A stretch of 64,000 bases of DNA from Pseudomonadota bacterium. Lineage in GTDB: Bacteria; Pseudomonadota; Alphaproteobacteria; Rhizobiales; Beijerinckiaceae. Numbering within the stretch: the first letter of the stretch is position 1; each line of letters begins with the position of its first letter. Shown here piece by piece: positions 45,778 to 62,963 of the stretch. The DNA lies in the NCBI GenBank assembly GCA_021781815.1, contig JAJXWB010000004.1, positions 62,001-126,000 of the forward strand, written 5' to 3'. Below the pieces are notes generated by a model. The model was given only the letters and a program-made list of their open reading frames with translations, was not told the origin of the DNA and made no database searches. Both the position numbers and the translations under genes were made by a program.

Positions 45778-46836
45778 TCAACCCGCACGATTCGGGTGCG
45801 GGGCGACGCCTAATCCTGCGCCTGCCGGCAAGCTCAGCGCTCCATCGGCCAGCGGCGGCCGCGGCGCAACGTCCTCCCGCAGCCATTCAAGCGTGGCGAG
45901 GCCGTGGGTCTGCTCCGCAGCCAGCGCCGCCGCAAGATGTGCGGCGGCGACGACGCCGATCGCGCTGTCGACGACCGAGGTCAGCACCAGCTCCATGCCC
46001 GCGGCGCGCGCCCGGTCCGCCAGCCGCAGCGTCGCGGATACGCCTCCCGCGCGCGCGGGCTTCAGCACGAGGCGCTGAACGGCTCGCGCGCGGAACAGGG
46101 CGTCGGGCCCAAGCACGGACAGGGATTCGTCGACCGCCAGCGCGCAGGTCGCCAGCGCCTGCAATTGCGCCAGCAGGCCAAGCGTCGGTTCGGCGAGCGG
46201 CTCCTCGACGCATTCAACCGGCAGATCCCTGATCCCAAGCAGGAAGCGTCGGGCGTCGGAAGCGGACCATGCGCAATTGGCGTCGAGCCGCAATCGCAAC
46301 CGCCCGCCAGTCTGGGCGGCCAGCTCATGCACTAGCCCGATCTCCACATCCACGCCGCCGACCCCGACTTTGATCTTGCCGGTCGAATAGCCGCTGGCGA
46401 GCGCCGCTTGCGCGCGGGCGCCGACTCCGGCGTCGAGCGCGCCCAATGCCGCATTGACCTTGATCGCGCTGCCAGCCCGGGAGTTCAGCAACCGAGCCAG
46501 AGGAATATCGAGCGCGCGGGCGCGCAGATCGTAAAGCGCCGTTTCCAGCGCCCACGTCGCCTCGGGGAATTCGCCGCCGCCAGTTTCAGCGAACGCGGTC
46601 GCCACCGATCGTCCGCGCAGATCGCCAACAATTGCGCGCAGGGCGCCGATCACGAGCGACCGCCGGGCCTCCCCGGAACTGGGCAACGGCGCGCAATCGC
46701 CGTAGCCGATGAGCCCGTCGTCGGCGCGCAGCGCCAGCAGGACGCCGTGCCGCACGCCAATGGTCTCGCGCGCGCCGGCCCACGGTCGCACAAGCGGGAG
46801 GGAATAGGGTTGAAGCCAGGCCTCGACGATTTTCAC
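45778..46836 (-). CDS. menC: o-Succinylbenzoate synthase
   Basis: Dehydrates SHCHC to o-succinylbenzoate in menaquinone biosynthesis. The 352-residue enolase-superfamily protein has the KxK catalytic motif (TGKIKVGVGG), metal ligands in LRLDANCAWS, VECVEEPL and LAVDESL, and the second Lys in LVLKPARAGG. Related enzymes epimerise dipeptides or racemise amino acids, but the position right after menF-menD-menB makes the menC assignment firm. It is the last gene of the operon and convergent with the lipoprotein gene. Confidence 0.9.
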   Translation of the reverse strand: MKIVEAWLQPYSLPLVRPWAGARETIGVRHGVLLALRADDGLIGYGDCAPLPSSGEARRSLVIGALRAIVGDLRGRSVATAFAETGGGEFPEATWALETALYDLRARALDIPLARLLNSRAGSAIKVNAALGALDAGVGARAQAALASGYSTGKIKVGVGGVDVEIGLVHELAAQTGGRLRLRLDANCAWSASDARRFLLGIRDLPVECVEEPLAEPTLGLLAQLQALATCALAVDESLSVLGPDALFRARAVQRLVLKPARAGGVSATLRLADRARAAGMELVLTSVVDSAIGVVAAAHLAAALAAEQTHGLATLEWLREDVAPRPPLADGALSLPAGAGLGVAPHPNRAG

Positions 46837-46845
46837 CGCGCGCGC

Positions 46846-47706
46846 TCAGGGCCGAGGCGGGAAGTTGTGGAAATCGGGCGGCCGCTTGTCGTTGAAAGCA
46901 TTGCGGCCTTCCTGCCCCTCCTCGGTCATGTAGAACAAGGCCGTCGCGTTGCCGGCCAATTCCTGCACGCCGGAAAGTCCGTCGGTGTCGGCGTTGAACC
47001 CCGCTTTAAGCACCCGCAGGGCGGTCGGCGAGTGCTGCAGCATTTCGCGACACCAGCTCAAGGTTTCTTCCTCCAGGCGCTCCAACGGAACAACCGCATT
47101 GACGAGCCCCATGTCGAGCGCCTGCCGTGCGTCGTACTGGCGGCAAAGGAACCAGATTTCCTTGGCCTTCTTCAGCCCGACAGCGCGCGCCATCAAGCCG
47201 CTGCCAAAACCCGCGTCAAAGCTGCCGACGCGCGGGCCGGTCTGCCCGAAGCGGGCGTTATCCGCCGCAATGGTCAGATCGCAGACCAGATGCAGCACAT
47301 TGCCGCCGCCGATCGCCCATCCCGCCACCATCGCCACCACGGGTTTCGGCAAGGTGCGGATCATACGTTGCAGATCGAGCGCATTCAGGTGGTTGACGCC
47401 GGACTGATCCTTGTAACCTCCATTTTCGCCACGTATTTTCTGATCCCCGCCCGCGCAGAAGGCTTCTGTTCCGGTCCCGGTCAGGATGATCACGCCAACC
47501 TGCTGATCCTGCCGCGCCATGTGCAGCGCGGTCATGATTTCCTCCAGAGTCTCAGGGCGAAACGCATTGTGCACATGCGGGCGATTGATGGCGATGCGGG
47601 CTATGCCAGGCATGACATCGAAGGTGATGTCGTGAAAGTCGGCGCCTGGAGCCTTCGTCCAGGAATGTGAATCGTCGTGGGTCAATTTCAGTGTCCTTGT
47701 TTGCAT
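46846..47706 (-). CDS. menB: 1,4-Dihydroxy-2-naphthoyl-CoA synthase
   Basis: Ring-closing crotonase-fold enzyme of menaquinone synthesis. The 286 residues show [35 protein letters not shown], and [11 protein letters not shown], the MenB-specific pattern with Asp at the catalytic position. The C-terminus [13 protein letters not shown] is the typical MenB ending. The ATG at 47706 lies inside the end of menD (19-base overlap), so translation is likely coupled. menC follows after 9 bases. Confidence 0.96.
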
Positions 47707-49382
47707 GAGGCATGAAAGGCGCGGCATCGCGCCAAACTCGTCGCGCGGTCGACGCGGATGCGGATGACCGCGGTTTTCGGCGTCTCCAGCGCCTTCAGCA
47801 CGGCGTCGACGGCTTCGTCGACACTCCCGGTGTCGAAGCTGGCAAGGCCGAATGCTTGCGCCGCCTTGCCCGGGTCCAGAGCTTGCGGCGTGAGCCAGCC
47901 GCGTTCGAATTCCGGCAGGCCGGCCTGCGGCAGATGGTCGAAAATTCCGCCGCCGCCGTTGTCGAAGACCAGCGCGACCAGAGGCAGATCGCGGCCAAAC
48001 GCCAGGGCGTTCAGGTCATGCAGGAAGGCGAGGTCGCCGACGGCCGCCACCGCGCGCCCGTGCGCTGCCGCGAGGCCGAACGCGGTCGAGATATTCCCGT
48101 CAATCCCGCTGACGCCGCGGTTTCCGTAGACACGAAGCGAATGCCGTGTGCGGCCGGCGAACCATTCCGCTGCGCGAATCGTGAGCGAATTTCCCAGAAA
48201 TAATGGCGTTGCCTCCGGCAGGGACTGAACGAGCGCGCGCAACACGCTTCCCTCGAACGCCTGATCGCCGCGACATGCCTGAGCCGCCGCGTCTGCCGCT
48301 GCGCGATCCAGCGCCAGAAATCGATCGAGCCAGGCATGCTCCGCCGGAGGTCCAGTCAAGTCCCCGCACAATGTTTCGGGATCCGCTGAGATCACGTGCG
48401 TGGCCGCGCCAAAAGGGTCGGCAAGACGCTGATGATCGGCGATGACGGCCTGCGGACATCCCGCGCTGAGTTCCAGCCATTCGGCCGTCGCGCGCGACAC
48501 GGGAGCGCCGCCAAAACGCAGGATCCAACTGGCCTTCGGCGCGGTCCGGGCGACCTGATCTGGATGCGTGAGGACGGTCTCGGCGCCGAAGGGGCCAAAA
48601 CGGAGGCCTGAAAGCGCATCGGCGAAGATCGGCGCGCCCAGGCGCAGGGCCAATTCACCGACAGCAAGTCGGAAGCCCGGGCCGAGATCATCCGGTCCGC
48701 AGACGATCGCCCCGGGGCCGGACGAGACAAACGCGGACAATGCCGCCAGCGCTGCTTTGCCGGGTTGCGCGTGCGCAGGAAACCAGCGCGGCGGCTCTCC
48801 CCTGGCGGGGGGAGGGACCGGCCCGCTTCCGCCGACCAGAGGCTCGCGCAACGGAATGTTGATATGAACGGGGCCGGCAAGCGGACCGAGACTCTCGGCG
48901 ACGCATTGCGCGGCGAGCCTCCCCAGCCAGGCGTTCTCCCGCTCGGCCGGCGGAAGCTGGTGAAAGGCGCGGACATGCCCGCTGAACAAGCCAAGCTGAT
49001 CCATGGTCTGATTGGCGCCGCATCCATGCAGTTCAGGCGGGCGATCTGCGGAAAGCAGAATGAGCGGCGCCCGCGCCATGTCGGCTTCGACGACCGCAGG
49101 AAGCCAGTTTGCGACTGCGGAACCCGATGTCGCGACGAGCACGGTCGGCGTCTTGGTCGCCTTGGCCTGTCCCAGGGCGAAAAATGCGGCTGAACGCTCG
49201 TCCACGACCACCTGGACTTTCAGACGGGGGTGGCGAAACGCCGCAAGCGCCAACGGCGTGGAGCGCGCGCCGGGAGAAATGACTGCACGCTGGACGCCGG
49301 CCGCGGCGAACCCGTCCATGAGGCGCGTCGCCCACAGTAATGTAACATCGGCATGTGCGCTCAGACGCGAACTGACGGTCAT
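47688..49382 (-). CDS. menD: 2-Succinyl-5-enolpyruvyl-6-hydroxy-3-cyclohexene-1-carboxylate synthase
   Basis: ThDP-dependent enzyme joining isochorismate and 2-oxoglutarate, the first committed step of menaquinone synthesis. The 564-residue protein has [19 protein letters not shown] at the N-terminus, the catalytic-Glu region [13 protein letters not shown] and the ThDP-binding [17 protein letters not shown] followed by [14 protein letters not shown]. All are MenD hallmarks. It overlaps menF by four bases and menB by 19. Confidence 0.97.
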
Positions 49383-50728
49383 GTCGCTTGCAACGCCTCC
49401 AGCATGGTGGTCGATTTCAGTCGTGTTTCAGCCAGTTCGTCGTCCGCATCCGAATCCGCCGTGATGCCGGCGCCGGCCCACAGAGCCACGGATCGTCCTT
49501 CGATATAGGCCGCGCGCAAAACGACAGCGGCGTCTCCATCGCCGTCGCGGTCGATCCAGCCAACCACGCCGGTATACAGGCCGTCGCGTTTTTCGCCCAT
49601 GTGCGCGAGCAGATCGCGGGCGGCCTTGCGCGGCGCGCCGAGCACGGCCGGTGTCGGATGCAGGCGCATAGCCGCATCGATCAACCCGACGCCTTCCGAC
49701 AGGCGTGCTGTCACCAACGTCCAGAGGTGGCGGACGCGACGCAACGAAAGCAATGACGGCTCGGCCGGGTGGCTCAGTTCATCGCAGACGCCGGCAAGCG
49801 AGTCGACAATGCCCTCGACGACCAGCTCGTGCTCTCGACGTTCTTTCTTCGAGGCCATCAGGGCGCGCGCCGCCTCGGCGTCGGCGACGGCGTCAGCCCG
49901 CCGGCCAATTGTGCCGGCGACCGCGTGGCTGGTCAGCCGGCGTCCGCGCTTGACAACCAGCCGTTCCGGGCTCGCGGCGATTACGTGGCCAGTTCCATGC
50001 GGCACGCAAAACACGCAGCATTCGGGATTGGCCTGCGCCAGCCGGCGCACCAGTCGCACGGTATCGACCGGGCGCGACATCAGCAGGCTTATTCGGCGCG
50101 CCAGCACGATCTTGGTTAAGGATCCGCTGACGATCGCTTTTTTCGCCGCCTCGACGAACCCGCGCCAAATCGCGTCATCCGGCTTTGATACGATCGCCAG
50201 CGCGTCCGAATGAACGGGCCTCGAAGGCGCCACAAGCATCAAACACAATTGTCGCATCCAGTCGTCGGCGATCGCGGCCGCCGATTCCTGGTTACGACGC
50301 GCCGTCAACGTCACCATCGCGTGTCCCTGTCCTTGTTCGACAAGAATCGCCGGAACCCAAAGATCGGGCGCCTGCGGCTCCGTCGCGGGCGGCAAGGTGA
50401 AAAAGGCGCGCGGCGCGCGCGACCCGGCGGTCAGCAAAACCCAGCGGGCGCATTCCGACGAGAACGATTTGGCTTCGGTCTGGCTGAAACGCGTCGCTTC
50501 GCCGCGCCCGAAGAATGTCAGATGTTCGCTCGGCGCCGTCCAGCAGCAATCCCAGCCGGCGATTTGGTCGAGCGCGAGCGAGACTGGAACGCAAATGCTC
50601 GCCAGACGTCCCTGCTCGATTTTGTCCAGACGCGGGATTGCCTGGTGGATTGCTGTTTCAACGGCGCGGCGCGCTGCTTCAACACCTTCATTTGCGCATT
50701 TCGCAGGCGTCTCAGTCACACAGTTCAA
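49379..50728 (-). CDS. menF: Isochorismate synthase (menaquinone-type)
   Basis: Converts chorismate to isochorismate. The 449-residue protein has the chorismate-binding domain of the MenF/EntC family (IVLARRISLL, FCVPHGTGHVIAASPERLV, ERREHELVVEGIV, PTPAVLGAPRKAA, YTGVVGWIDRDGDGDAAVVLRAA). The start is a TTG at 50728 with a GAGG about 10 bases upstream; a GTG at 50719 is the alternative. It heads the menFDBC operon. A perfect FNR-type site lies centred about 70 bases upstream, where it could act at -41.5 of a promoter just ahead of the gene. Confidence 0.93.
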   Translation of the reverse strand: MNCVTETPAKCANEGVEAARRAVETAIHQAIPRLDKIEQGRLASICVPVSLALDQIAGWDCCWTAPSEHLTFFGRGEATRFSQTEAKSFSSECARWVLLTAGSRAPRAFFTLPPATEPQAPDLWVPAILVEQGQGHAMVTLTARRNQESAAAIADDWMRQLCLMLVAPSRPVHSDALAIVSKPDDAIWRGFVEAAKKAIVSGSLTKIVLARRISLLMSRPVDTVRLVRRLAQANPECCVFCVPHGTGHVIAASPERLVVKRGRRLTSHAVAGTIGRRADAVADAEAARALMASKKERREHELVVEGIVDSLAGVCDELSHPAEPSLLSLRRVRHLWTLVTARLSEGVGLIDAAMRLHPTPAVLGAPRKAARDLLAHMGEKRDGLYTGVVGWIDRDGDGDAAVVLRAAYIEGRSVALWAGAGITADSDADDELAETRLKSTTMLEALQAT

Positions 50729-50790
50729 ATTCGAGCGCCTCGCCGCTGTGAAATCTGGCCGGACTTTTGCCGCTGCACGCCGGCGTCGCC

Positions 50791-50804
50791 TTGATGAGGA
50801 TCAA
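50791..50804. promoter_or_regulatory. FNR/FixK/NnrR-type binding site (TTGAT-N4-ATCAA)
   Basis: A perfect 5-4-5 palindrome, TTGATGAGGATCAA, lies in the 272-base divergent gap between menF (minus) and the Sco1-type gene (plus). This is the exact consensus of the FNR/Anr/FixK/NNR family. Its centre is about 70 bases from the menF start and about 203 bases from the sco gene start. The menF side fits a classical activating position best. The rest of the gap holds no gene I can support. Confidence 0.75.
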
Positions 50805-51000: not shown

Positions 51001-51603
51001 ATGACACGAATTGGCGCGACGCTCCTGTGCGCGGCGATGCTTGCGACTTCAACGGCCGCGATCCATGCGCAGGACTCGACCGCGCGCAAAGCGCCAAGCG
51101 AGTTCGCGCAATCGGGTCCGATCGGCGGAACGTTCATTCTCGTCGATCAGAACGGCAAGACTGTCACCGACGAAACGTATCAAGGCTCGTTTCTTCTGAT
51201 CGCCTTCGGTTACACGAATTGTCCGGATATCTGTCCGACGACCCTGTTCAATATGGAGCGGGCGCTCGATTTTCTCGGGGCCGACGCGGCAAAGGTGCGG
51301 CCCTTGTTCATCAGCGTCGATCCGGAACGCGACACGCCTGCTCACCTCAAGGAATATATGAGTTCGTTCGGGCCGACATTCGTCGGCCTCACCGGACCAG
51401 CCGCCCATATTGCGAGCGTCGCCGCCAAATACGGAATCAAATATGAAAAGGTCGCCAATTCGACAGGCTACAGCGTAGATCATACCGCCGCCATTTTTCT
51501 GATGGGGCCGGACGGGGCGTTTATCGAACGCTTTCCTCATGACCTCGACCCGGCGGAGCTTGCCGCGCGCGTGCGTCGACATCTTCATGCAAACGGCGGA
51601 TAG
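51001..51603 (+). CDS. SCO1/SenC/PrrC family thiol-copper protein
   Basis: A 200-residue exported thioredoxin-fold protein. The signal peptide ends near IHAQDS. The copper-binding CxxxC is Cys74/Cys78 in NCPDICPT, the conserved DPERDTP follows, and the copper-ligand His161 is in SVDHTAAIFL. Sco proteins deliver copper to, or reduce, the CuA site of cytochrome oxidase. NosZ has a CuA site, so a role in NosZ maturation is a reasonable inference from its place between the men and nos genes. The ATG at 51001 begins the signal; the long frame upstream is intergenic. Confidence 0.92.
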   Translation: MTRIGATLLCAAMLATSTAAIHAQDSTARKAPSEFAQSGPIGGTFILVDQNGKTVTDETYQGSFLLIAFGYTNCPDICPTTLFNMERALDFLGADAAKVRPLFISVDPERDTPAHLKEYMSSFGPTFVGLTGPAAHIASVAAKYGIKYEKVANSTGYSVDHTAAIFLMGPDGAFIERFPHDLDPAELAARVRRHLHANGG

Positions 51604-51624: not shown

Positions 51625-52986
51625 CTACTGAGCGTCGAACCACGCATCAGGGCGGTCCGCTCGCGCCGCCAGCCGGCGCAGGGCGAGGCGGTCGGGTTTT
51701 CCTGAGGCCAGAGCGGGCAAGGCAGGGACACGGACAGCAGCGCGAGGGCGGATGGAGGGCGCAACATGCGCCTGTGCCCAATCCAGCAGGGCGGCTTCGG
51801 AAATCGCGCCGCAAAAGACCGCAGTAACGATTTCACCCCAGACGGGATCATTCCGGCCGACGATGCTGACGGCGGTCAGGCCGGGGCATGCCGCCAGCGC
51901 CTCCTCGACCAGTCCGGGCAGGATCTTCTTTCCGCCGCTGACGATCACATCGTCGATGCGCCCCTGCACCAACAAACTTCCATCAGGGCCAATGTGCGCG
52001 ACATCGTTGGTGACGAACCAACCGTCGGTCAGACCATCGCCCGCACGCCACGCGGGATTTGCGTAACCCGCCATCAGCATCGGTCCACGAACCTTCAATC
52101 TGCCGTCGCTGCTCAGGGCGATCTCGATGCCTGGCAGGGGCTGGCCCACCATCCCCATCCGCCAGGTCTGCGCGGTCGAGCGCGACAATGGCGCGAGCGT
52201 GGCGACCTGCGACGCCATCTCGCTCATGCCGTATGTCGGCTGGATCGGCCAGCCGGACATCGTCGCGCGCGCGGCGAGGTCCGTGTCCAGCGCAGCGCCT
52301 CCGACAAGGACATGGCGCAGCCATGTCGGCGGCGGCGCGGCGGCGCGATCGAGCAGGAGCACCAGCATCGCCGGGACCAGCGACAGATGGGTGATTCGTT
52401 CGCTCGCCAGCGCGGCGAGAACGCGATCCGGATCGAATCCCTCGTGAACCACGGCATCGGCGCCGGCCAGCGCGCAGCGGCTTAGAATCGAATAGCCGCC
52501 GATGTGAAAGAGCGGAAGGCAAACAAGCCATGTGTCGCCGCGCCCCAGGGGGCAGCGCGCCTGGGACGCCGTTGCCGCGGCGCGCAGGGCCCCGGACCTG
52601 AGCATGACGGCCCTGGGGCGGCCGGTCGAACCACTGGTGGCGACAAGCAGCGCGATATCGTCCAGATCACGGGACGTGCGGGCGACTGGGTCGCGCGCGT
52701 CCTTGAAAAGATCGCGCTCCGATATAGCGATGCAACCGGACATCGCCCTGTCGCCGACCAGATATTGAATATTCGCCTGACGCAGCAGGTCGGTGATCGC
52801 GCTGTCGGGCAAGCCGGGATCGAGCGGCATGAAAGGCGACCCGAGCATGCCCGTCGCATGAATCAGGATCTGCAGAATCCGGCTCGATGAGGTCAGCGCC
52901 GCGATCGCATCGCGTCCGCGGCATCCTGCCCGCTGAAGCGCGGCTGCGGCATTGGCCGCTTCTGTCGAGATGTCGATTTCAGGCAT
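51625..52986 (-). CDS. menE: o-Succinylbenzoate-CoA ligase
   Basis: AMP-forming ligase that makes o-succinylbenzoyl-CoA, the substrate of MenB. The 453-residue protein is short for the superfamily, as MenE is. It shows LLVATSGSTGRPRAV, WLVCLPLFHIGGYSIL, QPTYGMSEMASQVATL, VQGRIDDVIVSGGKKI and the C-terminal catalytic Lys in LASGKPDRLAL. The ATG at 52986 is used; a GTG six bases upstream is possible. It is apart from menFDBC, separated by the convergent Sco1-type gene, and has its own upstream region. Confidence 0.9.
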   Translation of the reverse strand: MPEIDISTEAANAAAALQRAGCRGRDAIAALTSSSRILQILIHATGMLGSPFMPLDPGLPDSAITDLLRQANIQYLVGDRAMSGCIAISERDLFKDARDPVARTSRDLDDIALLVATSGSTGRPRAVMLRSGALRAAATASQARCPLGRGDTWLVCLPLFHIGGYSILSRCALAGADAVVHEGFDPDRVLAALASERITHLSLVPAMLVLLLDRAAAPPPTWLRHVLVGGAALDTDLAARATMSGWPIQPTYGMSEMASQVATLAPLSRSTAQTWRMGMVGQPLPGIEIALSSDGRLKVRGPMLMAGYANPAWRAGDGLTDGWFVTNDVAHIGPDGSLLVQGRIDDVIVSGGKKILPGLVEEALAACPGLTAVSIVGRNDPVWGEIVTAVFCGAISEAALLDWAQAHVAPSIRPRAAVRVPALPALASGKPDRLALRRLAARADRPDAWFDAQ

Positions 52987-53310
52987 GATCACTCGCTTTG
53001 GCGCGGCGCAGGGCTTGTCGCGTCTCGTTGACCCCCGGACCTAATTCAGCAGACCTGTGCGCCATCTTCGTGATTTTTTTCAAGCGATTGCATGAGTCGC
53101 AGCTTATCCGAAATCAAAGACGTTCATCAAAAGACTGCGCATTTTCGATCAGGGTGGAGTTTCGCGGCAATCCGGGCCACTGGCTCGCTCCGATGCAAGT
53201 TGTGTCGCTTTCCGCGCGATGACTCGCGCTGACGAACCGCCGAAGCGTCCCGTCCGCAGCGCGTCCTGCCTCGCGGGCAATGTGACGCGAACCTGAACCG
53301 GGAGCATGAA
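52987..53310. other. Intergenic region menE / pentapeptide gene
   Basis: 324 bases without a supportable gene, between two divergent genes. It holds a degenerate FNR-type palindrome (GTGAT-TTTT-TTCAA, 53070-53083, two mismatches to consensus) about 90 bases upstream of menE. I see no clear -35/-10 pair or other structure. Confidence 0.5.
53070..53083. promoter_or_regulatory. Degenerate FNR-type site upstream of menE
   Basis: GTGATTTTTTTCAA has 8 of 10 consensus bases of TTGAT-N4-ATCAA. On its own this is weak, but two better sites stand in the neighbouring men and nos intergenic regions. Confidence 0.35.
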
Positions 53311-53811: not shown

Positions 53812-53843
53812 GGCGAACGGTCGCAGCGAGTCGCCGCAAGGTG

Positions 53844-53857: not shown

Positions 53858-53894
53858 GGCGATAGCCACCAGCATGGATGTACGTATCCCCCCT

Positions 53895-53921: not shown

Positions 53922-53978
53922 CAGGCGCGCTACGAGACGGTCGCCATTCCGACGTCCGTCATGCCTACGGGGGCAGTG

Positions 53979-56273
53979 ATGAGGCTAGAGCTTTCCAGAA
54001 CGACCGCGATTGCAACGATACTCGCGCTGAGCGGGGCGTTCGCCAATTCCGCGTCCGCCGCAGAATCGTTGCAGGACGTGATGAAGCGACGCAATCTGAG
54101 CGAGAAAGACATGCTCGCGGCGGCAAAGACCTACACGCCGTCGGGCGGTCGCGACGAATTTCTCACTTTCAGTTCGAGCGGCCATGCCGGCTCCATCATC
54201 GTCTACGGCATCCCCTCGATGCGCATCTACAAGTACATCGCCGTTTTCACGCCGGAGCCCTGGCAGGGCTATGGCTTCGATGACGAGTCCAAGGCGCTGC
54301 TCAAGGCAGGTTCGCCTCAGGGCCAGACAATCAACTGGGGCGATACGCATCATCCCAATCTCTCCAAGACCAACGGCGATTACGATGGCCAGTGGCTGTT
54401 CATCAACGACAAGTCGACGCCGCGCATCGCGGTCATCAGCCTCAAGGATTTCGAAACGCGGCAGATCGTCGTCAATCCGGTGCTGACCAACGAGCATGGC
54501 GGCGCCTTCGTCACCAACAATACCGAATATGTGATGGAAGCCTCGCAGCTCCCCTCGCCGCTCGGCCATAAATATGCGCCGCTGGACAAGTTCAACGACG
54601 AGTTTCGTGGCGGCATCACCTATTGGAAGTTCAACAAGGACGCCGGCAAGATCGAGCAGGAAAATTCCTTCACGCTCGAGTTGCCGCCCTATAGTCAGGA
54701 TCTCGTTTCCTCCGGCAAGGGGCCGTCGGAGGATTGGGCGTTCCTCAATTCCTTCTGCTCGGAACGCTACGTCGGCGGAATCGAATCCGGCAAGCCGCCG
54801 TTCGAGGCGGGCTGCTCGGCTAACGACACCGACTTCATGCACATCATCAACTGGAAGAAGGCCGAAGCGGTCTTCAAGGCCGGCAAATTCACGAAGATCA
54901 ACGGCATGGCTGTCATCCCGCTAAAAACCGTGATTGACGAAGGTCTGGTCTATCTCGTTCCGGAGCCCAAGAGCCCGCACGGCGTGGACGTGTCTCCTGA
55001 CGGAAAGTTCGTGATCGTCGGCGGCAAGCTCGACAGCCATGGATCGGTCTTCGATTTCGCCAAGATGAAAGCGCAGATCGACGCCAAGAAATTCGTCGGC
55101 AAGGATGCTTACGGCTTCCCGATCCTCGACATGAAGGAATCGCTGCACACGCAGGTGGCGCTCGGCCTTGGCCCGTTGCACAACCAGTACGATAGCAAGC
55201 CCTGCGTCGTTTACACGTCGCTGTATGTCGACAGCCAGATCGTGAAGTGGGATTATTGCCAGGGTAAGGTTCTCGACAAGATCGCGATCCAGTACAACGT
55301 TGGCCATCTTCTGACGATGGGCGGCGACACGATGCACCCGGATGGGCATTATCTGGTCGCTCTCAACAAATTGTCGATCGACCGTTTCAATCCGGTCGGC
55401 CCCCTGCATCCCCAGAACCATCAGTTGATCGATATCAGCGGCGACAAGATGGAGTTGCTGTACGATCTTCCGATTGGCCTCGGCGAACCGCATCAGGCGG
55501 TCGCGATCAGGGCCGACAAGCTCAAGCCGACCATCCGTTACAAATACGGCACGGATAGCCGCACCGAAGAAGAGTCGAAATTCGCGGTGCGTCCGGGCAG
55601 TGAAAAGATCGTGCGGACACCGGGAAAAGTGGAGGTCTTCGGGACGGTCATCCGTTCACACTACAATCCGGAAATCGTCGAAGCCGAGGAAGGCGATCAG
55701 GTCACGTTCCATTGGACGAATTCGGAGCGCGCCGAGGACGAGACGCATGGTTTCGCCATCAGCCAGAACGACGTCAATCTTTCGCTTGAACCTGGCAAGA
55801 CAGCCTCGGCGACCATCGAGCATGCGAAAGCGGGCGTCTATCCGTATTACTGCACGGAATTCTGTTCGGCGCTGCACCTTGAAATGGAAGGCTATCTGAT
55901 GGTGCGCCCGAAGGGCTCGGCGATCGAGAAGGCGTCCACCAATGTCGGGACGGTATATACCAAGGCCGATTTCGACAAGCAGTATAAGGCCTGCCTCGAT
56001 ACGCAGTCCGTGATCGACAAGGTCGTGGCCTACATCACGTCGACCAATTTCAAGGACTTCCCGACAGCGGTCGGACAGGTCGAAGACGCCACCGACCAGC
56101 TCAAGTTCGGAACGGAAGCGCGAGCCAAGGCTGACGACTACGCCAAGAAGGAAGATTGGCAGAACGCCACGCTCTGGGCGGGCCAATGGTGGCAATATCA
56201 GGTCAAGGCCGCCGACATTGGCCTGCGCACGAAGACTTATCTTGAGCAGAACGGCGCCAGGACGGTCAAGTAA
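53979..56273 (+). CDS. nosZ: Nitrous oxide reductase, clade II (Sec-type) NosZ
   Basis: Periplasmic copper enzyme reducing N2O to N2. The 764-residue precursor has a Sec signal without a twin Arg, a mark of the atypical clade II enzymes. The beta-propeller carries CuZ ligands (DTHHPNLS His124/125, later HGVDVSPDGK, GPLHNQYD and GLGEPHQA). The cupredoxin domain has the CuA site YCTEFCSALHLEME (Cys625, Cys629, His633, Met636). About 120 residues follow CuA without a CxxCH heme motif. ATG 53979 is preferred over 53961 because of the G-rich site just upstream. It heads a full nos cluster. Confidence 0.97.
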   Translation: MRLELSRTTAIATILALSGAFANSASAAESLQDVMKRRNLSEKDMLAAAKTYTPSGGRDEFLTFSSSGHAGSIIVYGIPSMRIYKYIAVFTPEPWQGYGFDDESKALLKAGSPQGQTINWGDTHHPNLSKTNGDYDGQWLFINDKSTPRIAVISLKDFETRQIVVNPVLTNEHGGAFVTNNTEYVMEASQLPSPLGHKYAPLDKFNDEFRGGITYWKFNKDAGKIEQENSFTLELPPYSQDLVSSGKGPSEDWAFLNSFCSERYVGGIESGKPPFEAGCSANDTDFMHIINWKKAEAVFKAGKFTKINGMAVIPLKTVIDEGLVYLVPEPKSPHGVDVSPDGKFVIVGGKLDSHGSVFDFAKMKAQIDAKKFVGKDAYGFPILDMKESLHTQVALGLGPLHNQYDSKPCVVYTSLYVDSQIVKWDYCQGKVLDKIAIQYNVGHLLTMGGDTMHPDGHYLVALNKLSIDRFNPVGPLHPQNHQLIDISGDKMELLYDLPIGLGEPHQAVAIRADKLKPTIRYKYGTDSRTEEESKFAVRPGSEKIVRTPGKVEVFGTVIRSHYNPEIVEAEEGDQVTFHWTNSERAEDETHGFAISQNDVNLSLEPGKTASATIEHAKAGVYPYYCTEFCSALHLEMEGYLMVRPKGSAIEKASTNVGTVYTKADFDKQYKACLDTQSVIDKVVAYITSTNFKDFPTAVGQVEDATDQLKFGTEARAKADDYAKKEDWQNATLWAGQWWQYQVKAADIGLRTKTYLEQNGARTVK

Positions 56274-56287
56274 ACCCTTTGAGAACA

Positions 56288-56315
56288 GGGAGGCGCGCCT
56301 GCGCCTCCCCTTTTT
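56288..56315 (+). terminator. Intrinsic terminator between nosZ and the cytochrome gene
   Basis: A 9-bp perfect GC stem (GGGAGGCGC with GCGCCTCCC) and a 4-base loop are followed by CTTTTT, 14 bases after the nosZ stop. It is a canonical rho-independent terminator inside the cluster, probably partial, giving more nosZ than downstream message. Confidence 0.85.
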
Positions 56316-56332
56316 GTCCAGAAGGGCCTGAA

Positions 56333-56983
56333 ATGTCGAATACACTGAATATCGCACTGGCTTGCGCGAGTTTGCTGGCAATTCTTGCAGGCGCGCCGAA
56401 CCGTTCCAGCGCTGAGGACGCGCCGGGCGGCAAGCAGCTCTACATGACCCGCACCTGTATTGCATGTCACGGCAAGGACGGGGCCAAGGCTATCCAAGTA
56501 TACCCCAATCTTGCCGGGCTGGATAAAGGTTACCTCTACGCGGAAATGAAGGATATCGCGTCCGGCGCGCGCGTGTCCGGTCCCGACGCGCGCGGCTATC
56601 CGCGCACACAGGCCATGAAGGATGTGATGGGGATCGTGACGGACGATGAGCTCAAGACCATCGCCGCCTGGCTGAGCGAAAATCCGCCGCCGCCTGTCAA
56701 GCCAGGCGACCCGGCGAAGGTGACGGAAGGCGAAGAAGCTTACGCCAAATCCGGCTGCGTCGGCTGTCACGGCAAGGATGGCGTCAAGCCCATTTCGGGC
56801 TACCCGATGATCGGCGGACAGAAAAAGGAATATCTGGCTTTGCAGATCAAGGAAATCCGCGACGGCGTGCGCGCCAACGGACGCTCCAGAATGATGACGG
56901 CCATGGTCAAACGAGTGACCGATCCGCAAATCGACGCCATCGCGGAATATCTTTCCCAGATCAATCGCGCTGCGTCGAAATAG
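56333..56983 (+). CDS. Diheme cytochrome c of the nos cluster (NosC-like)
   Basis: A 216-residue exported c-type cytochrome with two CxxCH motifs (CIACH at 42-46 and CVGCH at 142-146) in two similar halves, as in cytochrome c4/c553 pairs. A signal peptide covers about residues 1-28. It most likely carries electrons from the membrane quinol dehydrogenase to NosZ. Wolinella-type clusters have two nosC genes; the matching of this one to NosC1 or NosC2 is not determined. AAGGG precedes the ATG at 56333. Confidence 0.92.
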   Translation: MSNTLNIALACASLLAILAGAPNRSSAEDAPGGKQLYMTRTCIACHGKDGAKAIQVYPNLAGLDKGYLYAEMKDIASGARVSGPDARGYPRTQAMKDVMGIVTDDELKTIAAWLSENPPPPVKPGDPAKVTEGEEAYAKSGCVGCHGKDGVKPISGYPMIGGQKKEYLALQIKEIRDGVRANGRSRMMTAMVKRVTDPQIDAIAEYLSQINRAASK

Positions 56984-57009
56984 ATTCCGCGTCAGAAGGA
57001 TAGATAGAG

Positions 57010-57765
57010 ATGAAGAAGATAGCGATAGCCCTGACGTCTCTGGCGGCTTTGGGCCTTGGCGCGGCTTGGGCCGGGGACGCCGTCCCGAAGGCGGACGCCG
57101 GCAAGGTCACCGTCGACTCTGAAGGAAAGACGCACCAGTGGATGAAGACCGGCGGCGAGCGCGAGAAGGCGCTGGAACTCAAGCCCGATCTCGCGCATGG
57201 CAAGGATGTCTACGAGGTCTGTTCAGCCTGTCATATGCCGGAAGGCTGGGGACGCGTCGACGGGACGTTCCCGGAAATCGCTGGCCAGCATCGCTCGGTT
57301 CTGATCAAGCAACTGACCGATATTCGTGAAGGCAACCGCGACAACCCGACCATGTATCCGTTTGCTTTGCCCTCGGAGATCGGCGGCGAGCAATCGGTGG
57401 CCGACGTCACCGCCTATATCCAGAAGTTGCCGATGAACCCCGAGAACGGGGTCGGGCCGGGAACCGATCTGGCGCATGGCGAGAAACTCTACAAGGATAA
57501 TTGCGTGCGCTGCCACGGCGCGACCGGCGAGGGCGACGCCGACAAATATTACCCGCGCATCCAGGGGCAGCATTACGAATACCTGCTGCGTCAGTACAAA
57601 TGGATCAAGGAAGGAAAGCGGCGGAACGCCAATCCCGACATGATGGCTCAGATCAAGGACTTTTCCGACAAGGATACGATAGATGTCCTTGATTACGTTT
57701 CTCGCCTGAAGCCGCCCAAGGAGCTGGTCGGCGCCAAAGGCTGGCACAACCCGGATTTCGAATGA
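57010..57765 (+). CDS. Second diheme cytochrome c of the nos cluster (NosC-like)
   Basis: A 251-residue exported cytochrome with a signal peptide ending near AWAGD. It has heme sites CSACH (71-75) and CVRCH (165-169), each followed by a cytochrome-c-like fold with distal Met candidates. The halves are less alike than in the first cytochrome. It lies 26 bases after the first and ends 60 bases before nosB, so it is in the same transcript. A soluble periplasmic electron carrier for NosZ is the likely role. Confidence 0.92.
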   Translation: MKKIAIALTSLAALGLGAAWAGDAVPKADAGKVTVDSEGKTHQWMKTGGEREKALELKPDLAHGKDVYEVCSACHMPEGWGRVDGTFPEIAGQHRSVLIKQLTDIREGNRDNPTMYPFALPSEIGGEQSVADVTAYIQKLPMNPENGVGPGTDLAHGEKLYKDNCVRCHGATGEGDADKYYPRIQGQHYEYLLRQYKWIKEGKRRNANPDMMAQIKDFSDKDTIDVLDYVSRLKPPKELVGAKGWHNPDFE

Positions 57766-57825: not shown

Positions 57826-58473
57826 TTGACCGAATTACAAAAACCCAGCGCAGCGCCGTTCCGCCTGTTGACGCTGGCCGGTATGGCCATCCTGGCGGCC
57901 GCGTTCTTCTCGCCGATCTGGTGGGTCAGCCTCAAGGCGCCGAATTATCCGCCCGAGACCTTTCCCGATGGGGTGCGCATCGTCTTTCAGTTCAACGGAG
58001 TCAAAAACGGCTGCCAGTTACGTCAAAGCAAGGAAGTAGAAGAAGACGAGCCGCTCGACTGCGTCCATGAGATGAATACGATCAATCATTATATCGGGAT
58101 GCATCCGATCGCCGACGGCGCCAAATACGAGATCGCCGCGGCGCCTTATCTCTTTGCCGGCGTAGGTGTGATGCTGCTGGCTTTCATGTTCTATTCGGGC
58201 CCCTTCTGGTGGCTTCTGGCGCTGCCGGCGATCTTCGTTCCGATCGGGTTCGTCGCCGATTATTCCGGGTGGCTTTGGTATTATGGCCATACTCTCAGTC
58301 CGATGGGCGCGTTCACTGTAAAGCCATTCATGCCGACAGTGTTCGGTGAGGGTAAAGTCGCGCAGTTTTCGACATATTCCTATCCGGACTACGGCTTCGG
58401 TCTTCTGGTCGTCGCTTCCTTCGCTGTCTTGCTGGCGTTACTGCTGCGCAGGAAGCAATTGCGCCAAAGGTAG
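57826..58473 (+). CDS. nosB: NosB-like membrane protein of clade II nos clusters
   Basis: A 215-residue protein with about four membrane helices (around residues 15-36, 105-123, 127-147 and 190-208) and a periplasmic loop between the first two. A gene like this is found in clade II clusters of Wolinella, Anaeromyxobacter and others and is named nosB; its function is not established. The start is a TTG at 57826 with GGGAGCAGGA just upstream. Assignment rests on topology and position between the cytochromes and nosD. Confidence 0.78.
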   Translation: MTELQKPSAAPFRLLTLAGMAILAAAFFSPIWWVSLKAPNYPPETFPDGVRIVFQFNGVKNGCQLRQSKEVEEDEPLDCVHEMNTINHYIGMHPIADGAKYEIAAAPYLFAGVGVMLLAFMFYSGPFWWLLALPAIFVPIGFVADYSGWLWYYGHTLSPMGAFTVKPFMPTVFGEGKVAQFSTYSYPDYGFGLLVVASFAVLLALLLRRKQLRQR

Positions 58474-58481
58474 ATCCGGAT

Positions 58482-59729
58482 ATGCGTCTGGCCCACGCCT
58501 TGTTGATTGTCGGCGCGTTCTGGTCCGGGCAGGCGAGCGCGCAAAACCCGCCGCCGTTTCAGCCATTGGTCGATGCGGCGCCGGAGGGCGGCGTATTGCG
58601 GCCGGCGCCTGGCGTTTACGCTGGGCCGGCGACCATCGGCAAGGCGATGACCATCGACGGCGGCGGCTCGGTAACGATCACTGGAAACGGCCTTGGCACG
58701 GTCGTGACCTTGACCGGCCGGCAAATTGTGCTGCAGGGCCTCAAGATCCGCGACAGCGGCCATCGGCATGAGAATCAGGATGCGTGCATTCGGCTCGAAG
58801 GCGCCAGCTTCAATGTTGTGAAAGACAATGACCTCGCGGGTTGCCTCGTCGGCATCGACGTGAACCGCGCCGATCGAAATATTTTCAGAAGGAATCGGAT
58901 CCAGGGACTCGAACCTGCATCCGACATGCGCGGCGACGGGGTGCGTGTCTGGTATTCGAATGACAATCTTTTTGAGCGCAATTCGATTGCCGATCATCGC
59001 GACTTCATCCTGGAATACTCGACGCGAAATGCTCTGATCGGCAATAAAATAACCAATGGGCGCTATGGCACGCATTTCATGTATGCGAGCGGCAATGTCG
59101 CCAAAGACAATGTCTATGAAAATAATGAGGTCGGCATCTTCTCGATGTATGCCAGCCACCTCTGTCTGGTCGGCAACAGCGTCCTCAACAGCAATGGCCC
59201 GTCTGGCTTTGGGCTCGGCTTCAAGGAGGCCGGCAATCTGACCGTGGAGAATAATCGGGTTCTTGGCAACGCCATAGGCATTTACCTCGACGATTCGCCT
59301 TCGGACACCGATCAGATCAACGCCTTCCGCGATAACAGGATCGGATTCAACGGCGTGGCGATCCAGTTTCACAGCAGCGGCGAAGGCAATAAATTCAGGG
59401 GAAATTCGTTTTACGGAAATTATACGGATGTCGCGGCGCATGGCGGCGCCGCCGCCGCGTCGGCGGTTTGGGACGGCAATTCCTGGGACGCCTATCAGGG
59501 GTTCGATCGCTCGGGTCGCGGCGTCGGCGACACACCGTTCGAAGTCTACGCTTATGCGGACCGCATCTGGGCGGATCTCCCGATGGCCAGCTTTTTTCGA
59601 GGATCGCCTCTGTTCGAAAGCATCGATTTCCTGACGAGACTTGCTCCCTTCTCGAAGCCGCAGCTCATCCTGCGTGACGAACGCCCGGCGACGCGACCGA
59701 TAGTCGATGCGCCCGCAACTTGCGGATGA
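58482..59729 (+). CDS. nosD: NosD, periplasmic copper-site maturation protein
   Basis: A 415-residue exported parallel beta-helix (CASH repeat) protein needed with NosF and NosY to assemble the CuZ centre. The signal peptide ends near QASAQN. Right-handed helix repeats follow (NVVKDNDLAG, NIFRRNRIQG, NLFERNSIADH, NVAKDNVYENNEVG), with the conserved ending DRIWADLPMASFFRGSPLFESIDFL. It starts 9 bases after nosB and is followed by nosG four bases later. Confidence 0.95.
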   Translation: MRLAHALLIVGAFWSGQASAQNPPPFQPLVDAAPEGGVLRPAPGVYAGPATIGKAMTIDGGGSVTITGNGLGTVVTLTGRQIVLQGLKIRDSGHRHENQDACIRLEGASFNVVKDNDLAGCLVGIDVNRADRNIFRRNRIQGLEPASDMRGDGVRVWYSNDNLFERNSIADHRDFILEYSTRNALIGNKITNGRYGTHFMYASGNVAKDNVYENNEVGIFSMYASHLCLVGNSVLNSNGPSGFGLGFKEAGNLTVENNRVLGNAIGIYLDDSPSDTDQINAFRDNRIGFNGVAIQFHSSGEGNKFRGNSFYGNYTDVAAHGGAAAASAVWDGNSWDAYQGFDRSGRGVGDTPFEVYAYADRIWADLPMASFFRGSPLFESIDFLTRLAPFSKPQLILRDERPATRPIVDAPATCG

Positions 59730-59733
59730 TGCA

Positions 59734-60510
59734 ATGACCAAATGGCTCAGCAATCTGTTCCAGCCGGACGCGCGGCCGAAACATCGCGAGGACCGGCGGC
59801 GCTTGCTGCGGTCGGCTGCTTTCGCCGGTGCGTTAGTTGGCGCCTCACTGCTGGGCTTTATCCCGATCGTCAAACGCTGGCGTGTGCGATTGCGGCCGCC
59901 TGGCGCGATCGAAGAGAATGAATTCTTGTCGGCCTGCATCAAATGCGGACAATGTGTCCAGGTCTGCCCGGTGAAGGCCATTCGTCTGGCGGATATCGAG
60001 GACGGCTTCGGCTTGGGCGTTCCGCATATCGATGCGCGCGTGCAGGCCTGCGACTTTTCCTGCGACGCCGTCCAATGCATTCTTGCGTGCCCGACGGGCG
60101 CCCTGTCGCACGACCTCTCGAAGAAGGAGGAAGTGCGAATGGGCGTCGCGCGTCTTTCCAGTCCGGGCAATTGCCTGGCGCGGAGAGGCGAGGGATTCAG
60201 GGGCGCGGCGCGCGGCGCCGCCTTCCCCGGCCTGCATCGCTATCTTGCTGTGGACCGATGGAAGCCGGTCCTGATCGCCGAACATCCCTACGATGTCGAG
60301 ATCTGCGATCTGTGTGTTCGCGAATGCCCGATCGAAGGCGCCATTTCGCTCGCGCCTGTGAGCGACGACCCGTCCGATAAACGACGCACCCCCGTCGTCC
60401 ACAAGTCCTGCGTGGGGTGCGGCATGTGCGAAATGATCTGCCCGGCGGAACCCGCAGCAATCACGGTCGACAGTCGCGCCACGTGGAGTGCGGGGGAGGG
60501 CCGGGCATGA
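59734..60510 (+). CDS. nosG: NosG (NapG-like) periplasmic 4Fe-4S ferredoxin protein
   Basis: A 258-residue iron-sulfur protein like NapG, proposed to form with NosH a menaquinol dehydrogenase feeding NosZ. Near the N-terminus, RRRLLRSAAFAGA precedes a hydrophobic stretch and is compatible with a Tat signal or anchor. Four [4Fe-4S] clusters are predicted: CIKCGQCVQVCP (68-79), a CDFSC...CILACP group, CDLCVRECP and CVGCGMCEMICP. It overlaps nosH by four bases (ATGA), which implies coupled synthesis of the two subunits. Confidence 0.93.
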   Translation: MTKWLSNLFQPDARPKHREDRRRLLRSAAFAGALVGASLLGFIPIVKRWRVRLRPPGAIEENEFLSACIKCGQCVQVCPVKAIRLADIEDGFGLGVPHIDARVQACDFSCDAVQCILACPTGALSHDLSKKEEVRMGVARLSSPGNCLARRGEGFRGAARGAAFPGLHRYLAVDRWKPVLIAEHPYDVEICDLCVRECPIEGAISLAPVSDDPSDKRRTPVVHKSCVGCGMCEMICPAEPAAITVDSRATWSAGEGRA

Positions 60511-61478
60511 GTCGGTTCGTTGAAGGCTTTCTCGTCATGCTCGGACGCGAGCCGGAGAAGCCGACGCATTTGACGCCAGCGGCGCGGATTGTCGTGGACG
60601 CGCAAGGCAGCCGCGAAGGTAAGGCGCGACGCAAGAAACTGATCGCGGAAGAACGCGAGTCGAATTATCGGAGCCACTTCTGGCGCAACTGGCGCTGGGT
60701 TTCGATCATCGTCGTCAATCTCCTGTTCGTCCTGTCCTACAGGGCGGACGTGCAACTGGTCGAGGGAGCGCTGACTGCGTCGAGGTTTGTCGGATTTCAT
60801 ATGGCCGACCTGAATTCCGCCTTGCAGGTCATGCTGGCGTACAAGCATCTGCTGATCAATCTGGTGATCGGAACGGGAACTGTCCTGTTCGCTTGGTGGC
60901 TGCTGGGCGGCCGCAGCTTCTGTTCATGGGTATGCCCCTATCACCTGCTGGCCGAAATCGCCGAGATGCTTCATCTGAAACTCGCCGGTCGCGGCCTCGT
61001 CAGCGATCACACGCTGCATCGCGGGACTCGAACGGCGCTGTATGCAAGCTTCGTCGTGCTGGCGCTCGCCACTGGCTATACGGTGTTCGAATTCATCTCT
61101 CCGGTAGGCATCCTGTCGCGCGCCTTCATCTATGGCGCAAGCCTGGCGCTGATCTGGGTTCTGGCGCTGCTGCTGATCGAGATTTTCTATTCGCGTCGCT
61201 TCTGGTGTCGTTACGTATGCCCGATCGGCCTGACTTACGGCTTCGTCGGCGCATTTTCGCCAGTGAAGGTCGTCTACAATCTTGAGCCGTGCCTGCACGA
61301 AGGCAAGTGCCGCCAGGTCTGCATGGTGCCGCATGTTCTGAGCATGACGCGCATTGGTTATGCTGATGACGTCAAGATCGACATCGGGGCCGACTGCACG
61401 CGCTGCGGAATGTGCGTGGAGGTCTGCCCGACCAAGGCTTTGAGCTTCGACATCAAGGGATTAAACAAGCTGCTCTAG
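60507..61478 (+). CDS. nosH: NosH (NapH-like) membrane quinol dehydrogenase subunit
   Basis: A 323-residue membrane protein of the NapH/NosR-C-terminal family. It has four predicted helices (around 67-85, 115-135, 180-200 and 208-228), the two Cys-rich cytoplasmic CxxxCP motifs (CSWVCP and CRYVCP), and a C-terminal ferredoxin-like region with CLHEGKCRQVC and CTRCGMCVEVCP. NapH interacts with menaquinol in known systems, so use of menaquinol is inferred here. GGGGGAGGG lies just before the ATG, which overlaps the nosG stop. Confidence 0.92.
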   Translation: MSRFVEGFLVMLGREPEKPTHLTPAARIVVDAQGSREGKARRKKLIAEERESNYRSHFWRNWRWVSIIVVNLLFVLSYRADVQLVEGALTASRFVGFHMADLNSALQVMLAYKHLLINLVIGTGTVLFAWWLLGGRSFCSWVCPYHLLAEIAEMLHLKLAGRGLVSDHTLHRGTRTALYASFVVLALATGYTVFEFISPVGILSRAFIYGASLALIWVLALLLIEIFYSRRFWCRYVCPIGLTYGFVGAFSPVKVVYNLEPCLHEGKCRQVCMVPHVLSMTRIGYADDVKIDIGADCTRCGMCVEVCPTKALSFDIKGLNKLL

Positions 61479-61608
61479 ACGCCGCCTTGCGCCCGATCTT
61501 CCCCTCGATGGCCGGACGGGATCGTTTGGCGACCAGGCGCACCTAATCATGTGTTGTCCACGTGCGATTCGGAATCAGGTCTGTGTGAGAACGCATCAGG
61601 AGCCCGGA

Positions 61609-62496
61609 ATGATCTGCCTCGAAGGCCTCGTCAAATCGTTTCAGAAGATCAGGGTTCTGGACTCGCTCGACCTGACGATCGAGGCTGGGGAGCGCATTGC
61701 GCTTGTCGGATCGAACGGAGCTGGCAAGACCACGCTGATACGATGCCTGCTCGGGGAATATACGCATGATGGCCGGGTTTTCGTCGACGGGCTGGCCCCT
61801 CGCCGCGATCGCGCCGAAGTTCTGAAGCGGGTGGGCTTCGTCCCGCAATTGCCCCCGCCGTTGAAAATGCCGGTCGAAGATTTGATCGCTTTCGCTGCTG
61901 GCGTCAGCGGCGCCGATGGCGCAAGGATTGTGCGCGTGGCCGGCGAACTTGGCCTTGACGCGCAGGAGGTAGGCAAGCGGCCGTTCATGAAGCTCTCCGG
62001 CGGCCAGAAGCAGAAGTTGCTGATCGCCATTGCGCTCGGCCGCGACGCGCGTCTGCTCATTCTGGACGAGCCCGCCGCCAATCTCGATCCGGCGGCGCGG
62101 CGGGCGCTCTTCGACATGCTCGCGCAGAGAACGAACGACACCATGATCGTTTCGAGCCACCGCGTCGATGAAGTGGCGTCGCTCGTGACGCGCGTCGTCG
62201 AAATGGAGCGGGGCAGGGTGGTGTTCGATGATCGTCTGGTCCAGGGACCGGCGATGGCGCCTTTGTCTGCGCAATTGCGCATCGCGAAAGCGGAGCCCGA
62301 ATTTATGGCGGCGATGGAGGAATGGGGGCTCGCCGCGGAGGGAGGCGGTCTCGTCTGGCGCGGCGTCATCGCCGGTCCCGACAGACTGCGTTTCATGCAT
62401 TTTCTGTCGCGCTACAGCGGGCTTCTGGCGAGCGCGGCGTTCGAAACCCGGATTGCGGAAGGGTGTCACAATGAAACGATCGACATTTGCGCTTAG
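61609..62496 (+). CDS. nosF: NosF, ABC transporter ATPase
   Basis: The ATPase of the NosDFY complex that matures NosZ. The 295-residue protein has Walker A GSNGAGKTT (34-42), the Q-loop GFVPQLPPP, signature LSGGQKQKLLIAIAL, Walker B LLILDEPAANLDP and the H-loop SSHRVDEV. The start at 61609 has AGGAG about 7 bases upstream. A 130-base gap separates it from nosH, the largest inside the downstream nos genes, and may hold a secondary promoter that I could not define. It overlaps nosL by 26 bases. Confidence 0.93.
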   Translation: MICLEGLVKSFQKIRVLDSLDLTIEAGERIALVGSNGAGKTTLIRCLLGEYTHDGRVFVDGLAPRRDRAEVLKRVGFVPQLPPPLKMPVEDLIAFAAGVSGADGARIVRVAGELGLDAQEVGKRPFMKLSGGQKQKLLIAIALGRDARLLILDEPAANLDPAARRALFDMLAQRTNDTMIVSSHRVDEVASLVTRVVEMERGRVVFDDRLVQGPAMAPLSAQLRIAKAEPEFMAAMEEWGLAAEGGGLVWRGVIAGPDRLRFMHFLSRYSGLLASAAFETRIAEGCHNETIDICA

Positions 62497-62962: not shown

Positions 62963-62963
62963 C

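What the first reader, a model, noticed from the sequence alone, without database searches (positions are those of the whole stretch)
50791..50804. Perfect FNR/FixK/NnrR box between menF and the Sco1-type gene
TTGAT-GAGG-ATCAA is an exact match to the consensus. Its centre is about 70 bases before menF, which would place a transcription start about 28 bases before the start codon if the site acts at -41.5. This would make menaquinone synthesis inducible by low oxygen or nitrogen oxides, unlike the usual constitutive men genes.
Basis: partly seen in the sequence, partly recalled or inferred. Interest (0 to 1): 0.8.

Follow-up and report, generated by a model that had tools for sequence, protein, structure and literature searches.

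The report
FNR-type switch before menaquinone genes
A DNA sequence that oxygen- and nitric-oxide-sensing regulators recognise sits just where it could switch on vitamin-K-type quinone genes, which lie beside genes for breathing nitrous oxide, suggesting that this bacterium makes that quinone for low-oxygen respiration.

Summary
The box TTGAT-GAGG-ATCAA at 50791-50804 is real, exact and non-coding, centred 69.5 bp before menF of a menFDBC gene row. Exactness alone is weak evidence: the genome holds 4 such boxes, against a mean of 1.75 at twelve other spacings. Position and conservation are stronger. Of 17 other menF upstream regions (15 distinct), 5 carry a two-mismatch box 62-74 bp before menF, where shuffles predict about 0.04; four of these are one group (Rhodoblastus acidophilus and relatives), where box and a -10-like hexamer form a conserved block. 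Twelve lack it.

The setting is the larger finding: men genes stand 3 kb from a Sec-type (clade II) nos cluster with NapG/NapH-like genes, and a DNR-like regulator and nirS lie just beyond the window. Two MAGs carry nos, menA, menG and menFDBC on one contig. Likeliest reading: an FNR/FixK- or DNR-type protein activates menFDBC at low oxygen or with nitrogen oxides, supplying menaquinol for anaerobic, notably N2O, respiration. The site call holds; regulator, induction and use of menaquinol are untested, and the control looks lineage-specific.

The parts
50791..50804 (.). Exact FNR-type box TTGAT-GAGG-ATCAA, centre 50797.5
50763..50768 (-). Weak candidate -10 hexamer AAAAGT (3 of 6 to TATAAT) 30 bases after the box centre; predicted start near 50756
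   Evidence: inference
49379..50728 (-). menF, isochorismate synthase
   Evidence: TIGR00543 265.6 bits, above cut-off 224.75; MenF-specific NF011588 below its cut-off
47688..49382 (-). menD
   Evidence: TIGR00173 410.7 bits, above cut-off
46846..47727 (-). menB
   Evidence: NF005637 and TIGR01929 above cut-offs
45778..46836 (-). menC
   Evidence: TIGR01927 123.4 bits, just below cut-off 130.55; position in the men row
51625..52992 (-). menE
   Evidence: TIGR01923 274.9 bits, below cut-off 330.15
53070..53083 (-). Two-mismatch box TTGAA-AAAA-ATCAC, 84.5 bp before menE (GTG 52992)
   Evidence: chance 2.6% for any such box at 55-125 bp
51001..51603 (+). sco, SCO1/SenC family
   Evidence: PF02630 164.6 bits
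53844..53857 (+). One-mismatch box TTGAG-AATT-ATCAA, 110.5 bp before nosZ
53961..56273 (+). nosZ, Sec-type (clade II)
   Evidence: TIGR04246 839.4 bits, above cut-off 625; TAT-type TIGR04244 below its cut-off
56279..56983 (+). c-type cytochrome in the nosC1 position
   Evidence: cytochrome c families below cut-offs; name by position
57010..57765 (+). c-type cytochrome in the nosC2 position
   Evidence: cytochrome c families below cut-offs; name by position
57826..58473 (+). nosB-like membrane protein
   Evidence: no Pfam match; name by position, recalled
58482..59729 (+). nosD
   Evidence: TIGR04247 346.7 bits, above cut-off
59707..60510 (+). nosG, NapG-like ferredoxin-type protein
   Evidence: NapG/MauM families below cut-offs; position
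60417..61478 (+). nosH, NapH-like
   Evidence: TIGR02163 232.9 bits, above cut-off 213.05
61549..63791 (+). nosF (ABC ATPase), nosL- and nosY-like genes
   Evidence: ABC ATPase matches for nosF; nosL and nosY by position and homology to relatives' clusters

Best explanation
The box is a working operator at which an FNR/FixK- or DNR-type regulator activates menFDBC from a class-II promoter (site near -41.5) at low oxygen or with nitrogen oxides. The operon makes a menaquinone precursor; with MenE and a MenA coded elsewhere it would supply menaquinol for anaerobic respiration, in this genome most plausibly through NosG/NosH and the c-type cytochromes to the Sec-type N2O reductase next door. Shown: sequence, position, gene content, linkage, conservation in part of the relatives. 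Inferred: one transcript, binding, activation, the signal, and use of menaquinol by NosGH.
For: Exact box with centre 69.5 bp before menF. Two-mismatch boxes at 62.5-73.5 bp in 5 of 17 other menF upstream regions, shuffle expectation about 0.04 in sum. In four R. acidophilus-group loci the box-to-minus-10 block has 41 of 55 positions invariant, the next 18 positions 4 (counted), with CA[CG]AAT exactly 30 bases after the box centre in all four. Another exact box 67.5 bp before an OmpW-family gene. Boxes before nosZ in own genome and three MAGs and before sco in two. 10 of 11 regulators read in full have E..SR; two DNR-like regulators lie on the same contig. Nos and men genes are linked in own genome, L084 and L085.
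Against: Exact boxes are hardly in excess genome-wide, and one of the four lies in a dnaG-like ORF. The own -10 candidate is 3 of 6; those at OmpW and L085 menF are poorer. 12 of 17 other menF regions have no box within two mismatches at 60-75 bp, nor anywhere in their 250 bp. The nirS-nosR region and the DNR gene's upstream region have no such box. G056 has the nos cluster without MenD; four R. acidophilus-group genomes have men without NosZ.
Confidence: 0.55

Rival explanations
1. The box is a chance match in the menF-sco gap and does nothing; menF is expressed by an ordinary promoter.
For: 4 exact boxes against a mean of 1.75 at other spacings, Poisson P 0.10; one exact box lies in a dnaG-like ORF; own -10 is weak; most other men operons examined lack the box.
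Against: Position shared with two other lineages, conserved box and -10 block in the R. acidophilus group, and 0.025-0.035 exact boxes expected per window.
Confidence: 0.25
2. The box serves sco (for copper delivery to NosZ) rather than menF.
For: In L215 and L085 sco has its own two-mismatch box at 61.5 and 60.5 bp; sco stands beside nos genes in own genome, L085, L215 and L212.
Against: The own box is 203.5 bp from sco but 69.5 bp from menF; in L080 and L083 no sco match was found between menG and menF, yet the menF box is there.
Confidence: 0.08
3. The box is bound, but the protein represses menF or answers another signal, so low oxygen or nitrogen oxides do not induce menF.
For: 14 HTH_Crp_2 matches in the genome, 12 over the cut-off, so signals are many; PMC11539149 (passages) infers negative control of a clade II nosZ by a Crp/Fnr protein.
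Against: The spacing to a -10-like hexamer in the R. acidophilus group is that of activated class-II promoters (class-II rule recalled).
Confidence: 0.12

Closest known systems
FNR sites before ubiTUV (O2-independent ubiquinone pathway) in Pseudomonadota, PMC11707229
   Same: FNR-type palindromes before quinone-synthesis genes; candidate sites for 1362 of 1566 ubiTUV triplets (passages)
   Different: Here the target is the Men operon; in what I read of that paper (passages, sections 23 and 26) the site scan was for ubiT, ubiU and ubiV
Clade II N2O respiration of Wolinella succinogenes (NosG, C1, C2, H module)
   Same: Sec-type NosZ, two c-type cytochromes, NosB-, NosD-, NosG- and NosH-like genes; PMC11102522 (passages) says NosC1/C2 were predicted to carry electrons from menaquinol
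   Different: Here in an alphaproteobacterium (class that mainly uses ubiquinone, recalled), with men genes beside the cluster
Menaquinone synthesis in E. coli
   Same: Classical Men pathway; high naphthoquinone levels only without oxygen (PMC6257245, passages)
   Different: There described as regulated differently from FNR-controlled enzymes
Microaerobic MK-7 in Mesorhizobium huakuii 7653R (PMC3237581, abstract and passages)
   Same: Alphaproteobacterium that makes menaquinone under microaerobic conditions and ubiquinone under aerobic ones
   Different: [quoted passage not shown] no FNR-type site appears in the passages seen

Membership tests
FNR/FixK/DNR-type operator | TTGAT-N4-ATCAA palindrome | tested here: met
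   exact match; enrichment of exact boxes genome-wide weak
FNR/FixK/DNR-type operator | class-II spacing to a -10 element and gene start | tested here: inconclusive
   distance fits; own -10 only 3 of 6, 4 of 6 in four relatives
FNR/FixK/DNR-type operator | conserved in orthologous promoters | tested here: inconclusive
   5 of 17 menF regions (two of about seven lineages) with two-mismatch boxes, 12 without
FNR/FixK/DNR-type operator | a cognate regulator in the genome | tested here: met
   10 of 11 full regulators with E..SR; FixK2/FNR-like L053, L054, DNR-like L048, L049
FNR/FixK/DNR-type operator | binding and oxygen- or NO-dependent transcription | not testable with these tools
   needs footprinting and transcript mapping
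Clade II (Sec-type) nos cluster | Sec-type NosZ by curated model | tested here: met
   TIGR04246 839.4 bits versus cut-off 625
Clade II (Sec-type) nos cluster | NosG/NosH-type quinol dehydrogenase genes | tested here: met
   NapH family above cut-off, NapG families below; positions conserved in L084, L085, L212, L215
Classical Men pathway | menF, D, C, E, B, A present | tested here: met
   F, D, B above cut-offs; C and E best to the right family but below cut-offs; menA on contig C33 above TIGR00751 cut-off. menH, menI and own menG/ubiE not looked for

The most novel reading that the evidence does not exclude
Some relatives of Rhodoblastus carry a respiratory module in which clade II N2O reduction comes with its own quinone: nosZ to nosY with menA, menG, sco and menFDBC/menE, and with menaquinone synthesis switched on by the same class of low-oxygen or nitrogen-oxide regulators as denitrification. 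Menaquinone would then be an inducible, respiration-specific carrier added to a ubiquinone-based cell.
Probability: 0.4. Interest if true: 0.75.

Novelty: new variant of a known kind. Interest (0 to 1): 0.55.

Why it matters
Clade II N2O reducers are an important sink of a greenhouse gas, and how far they depend on menaquinol is open. An alphaproteobacterium with menaquinone genes beside a clade II nos cluster, under an FNR-type box, makes that testable: delete menD and ask whether N2O respiration stops while oxygen respiration continues. It would also extend FNR-type control of quinone synthesis from ubiTUV to the Men pathway.

Tried and rejected
Led nowhere: a futalosine-type menaquinone route (PF02621) in 10 genomes, 0 found. 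An NnrR-like pattern TTGCG-N4-CGCAA (recalled) at up to two mismatches in the island gave many hits and was not used. An island-wide regulon with this consensus was looked for and not found: a norC-like gene has a two-mismatch box 75.5 bp upstream (my arithmetic), but the nirS-nosR region and the DNR gene's upstream region have none.

Rejected: exactness of the box as proof. The program's inside/intergenic label (1 of 20 controls intergenic) was not taken at face value, since ORFs drawn to their farthest start swallow promoters, the OmpW box included; I re-read the 20 controls by eye from the printed ORFs (about 3 intergenic, perhaps 5). 20 of 21 controls were fetched; the one on contig C60 was left out. 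The site as coding sequence of a longer sco was considered and judged unlikely.

The 60-75 bp window was set after seeing the own site, and start codons in relatives were chosen by eye.

Literature: ten searches; from titles and openings of abstracts I recognised no paper reporting an FNR-type box before a men operon or a nos-men cluster. Only open-licence PMC papers are held. Seen: PMC11707229 (outline, passages, sections 23 and 26); PMC11539149, PMC11102522, PMC6257245, PMC3237581 and PMC6682613 (passages only). Everything else is recalled where so marked.

Full report
The observation. TTGATGAGGATCAA stands at 50791-50804, between menF (minus strand, TTG start 50728) and sco (plus strand, ATG 51001). 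Its centre is 69.5 bp from menF and 203.5 bp from sco. It is the only exact match in the window; Markov models expect 0.025-0.035 per 64 kb.

How special is an exact box? In the own genome (3.79 Mb, 60 contigs) TTGAT-Nn-ATCAA occurs 25 times for n = 0 to 12: 1, 1, 2, 2, 4, 0, 1, 4, 2, 3, 1, 1, 3 (counted). The functional spacing n = 4 gives 4, against a mean of 1.75 for the others (Poisson P 0.10); n = 7 also gives 4. Exactness alone therefore proves little. The four are: this site; one 67.5 bp before the ATG (L051:2296) of an OmpW-family gene (PF03922 147.8 bits); one 117.5 bp before hyaE (PF07449); and one inside an ORF that looks like dnaG (by eye). By eye 3 of 4 are intergenic, against about 3 of 20 controls at other spacings (Fisher P 0.035; 0.09 if 5 of 20). 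This comparison is small and partly subjective.

The gene neighbourhood. menD and menB pass NCBIfam cut-offs, menF passes that of the isochorismate synthase family, and menC and menE have the right best family but stay below cut-offs. A menA on contig C33 passes TIGR00751. sco is SCO1/SenC. 3.2 kb to the right of the box begins a Sec-type nosZ (TIGR04246 839.4 bits), followed by two c-type cytochromes, a nosB-like gene, nosD, and NapG/NapH-like genes in the nosG/nosH positions. Just past the window lie a tlpA-like gene (by eye), a DNR-like regulator, nir genes with nirS (Cytochrom_D1 468 bits; the others by eye), nosR-, nosX-, norC- and norB-like genes (by eye; norC had no NCBIfam match and norB only weak oxidase-family matches), and a second DNR-like regulator.

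Who else has it. In 248 genomes drawn from the GTDB family, the own genome and seven of one other genus have MenF matches at E below 1e-80; the next best is 4.6e-52. That genus holds Rhodoblastus acidophilus (equal contig lengths); NCBI places Rhodoblastus in Rhodoblastaceae, GTDB in Beijerinckiaceae (recalled). MenD was found in 7 of 11 genomes of that genus and in 0 of 5 other genomes of the own genus. NosZ matched in 5 of 13 genomes: own, G056 of the own genus, and G209, G033 and G196 of the Rhodoblastus genus; four R. acidophilus-group genomes had none. With the MenF alignment at E below 1e-90, 1 of 385 sampled class genomes (the own) and 8 of 397 sampled order genomes (own included) matched.

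Nos-men clusters. In MAG SKS5.bin75 (L084): nosZ, C1, C2, B, D, G, H, F, L, Y, menG, menA, menFDBC, with menE opposite. In MAG BP7.bin16 (L085): nosC2, B, D, G, H, F, L, Y, menA, tlpA, then menG and sco opposite, then menFDBC, menE opposite; its nosZ is further along the same contig. In G033, menG and sco sit at the nos cluster while menFDBC/menE and menA are on two other contigs. In G056, menA, tlpA, menG and sco adjoin nos, yet no MenD and no PF02621 protein was found. The order varies but the association recurs. In L080 and L083 (R. acidophilus) menA, menG and menFDBC are linked, with no nos match in the locus.

Conservation of the box. Among 17 other menF upstream regions, a box with at most two mismatches lies 60-75 bp before the chosen start in 5: L080 72.5, L083 71.5, L022 73.5, L024 70.5, L085 62.5. 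It is absent in 12: L081, L020, L084, L082, L086 and L181-L187. L082, L184 and L186 are identical there, so 15 are distinct. Per-locus chance from first-order Markov resampling is 0 to 0.8%, 0.044 summed over the 17. Four of the five are one group of relatives, so this is two of about seven lineages. The window was set after seeing the own site, and starts were chosen by eye. In the R. acidophilus group 41 of 55 positions from just before the box through the -10 are invariant, against 4 of the next 18 (counted), and CA[CG]AAT stands exactly 30 bases after the box centre in all four. L085 menF and the own OmpW promoter have no good -10 there.

Other boxes. Before nosZ the own genome has TTGAGAATTATCAA at 110.5 bp, and G033, G209 and G196 have TTGACAAAAGTCAA, TTGACCAAAGTCAA and TTAACAAAAATCAA at 103.5-104.5 bp; G056 has none. 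Before sco, L215 and L085 have boxes at 61.5 and 60.5 bp; before own menE there is a two-mismatch box at 84.5 bp.

Regulators. PF13545 matches 14 places, 12 over the cut-off. Of 11 regulators read in full, 10 have E..SR in the recognition helix, and L053, L054, L055 and L057 also have clustered N-terminal cysteines. L053 and L054 match FixK2 (4i2o) best and FNR structures next. L048 and L049 match 3fx3/3h3z best and DNR (3dkw) next; the best NCBIfam match of L048 is FtrB, below cut-off. TTGAT/ATCAA suits FNR/FixK and TTGAC/GTCAA suits NNR-like proteins (recalled), but cross-recognition is common, so the regulator cannot be named.

Mechanism. Most likely a class-II promoter: an active FNR/FixK or DNR dimer near -41.5 recruits polymerase to a start near 50756 and turns on menFDBC when oxygen falls or NO appears. 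Menaquinol would be made beside ubiquinone and used by NosG/NosH and the cytochromes for N2O reduction, as predicted for Wolinella (PMC11102522, passages). In the R. acidophilus group, without NosZ, the box would serve another anaerobic use.

Against. Genome-wide excess is weak, the own -10 is poor, most other men operons examined lack the box, G056 has the nos cluster without MenD, and the nirS-nosR and DNR-gene upstream regions lack such a box.

Known context. FNR-type sites before quinone genes are published for ubiTUV (PMC11707229, passages). E. coli menaquinone synthesis is described as regulated differently from FNR-controlled enzymes (PMC6257245, passages). A Mesorhizobium makes MK-7 under microaerobic conditions (PMC3237581, passages). 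In ten literature searches I recognised no report of an FNR-type box before a men operon or of a nos-men cluster.

Verdict. A real and probably functional site; an ordinary kind of operator on an unusual target, in a gene neighbourhood that is the more interesting discovery.

Noticed in passing
L212 (G056:C27:293000-312999): A genome of the own genus has a clade II nos cluster with menA, tlpA, menG and sco beside it, yet no MenD match and no PF02621 protein: end-of-pathway menaquinone genes without the usual start of the pathway.
   Followed up: partly
L077 (G000:C1:8945-10036): A second, partial NosZ match (39% identity, residues 287-652) elsewhere in the own genome.
   Followed up: no
L160 (G000:C46:132000-150000): nosR- and nosX-like genes (by eye), usual with clade I NosZ (PMC11102522, passages), stand near nirS on the contig of the Sec-type nos cluster with nosG/nosH.
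   Followed up: no
L177 and L178 (own genome): One-mismatch FNR-type boxes lie at genes that look, by eye, like anaerobic benzoate-degradation genes: between a zinc dehydrogenase-like and an oxidoreductase-like ORF in L177, and inside a BadI-like ORF in L178.
   Followed up: no
L051 (G000:C47:23000-28000): An exact box stands 67.5 bp before an OmpW-family gene, almost the menF distance; E. coli ompW is FNR-controlled (recalled).
   Followed up: partly
window 52001-64000: G+C falls to 0.59-0.615 over the nos cluster, against 0.63-0.68 in most of the window, which would fit later acquisition.
   Followed up: no
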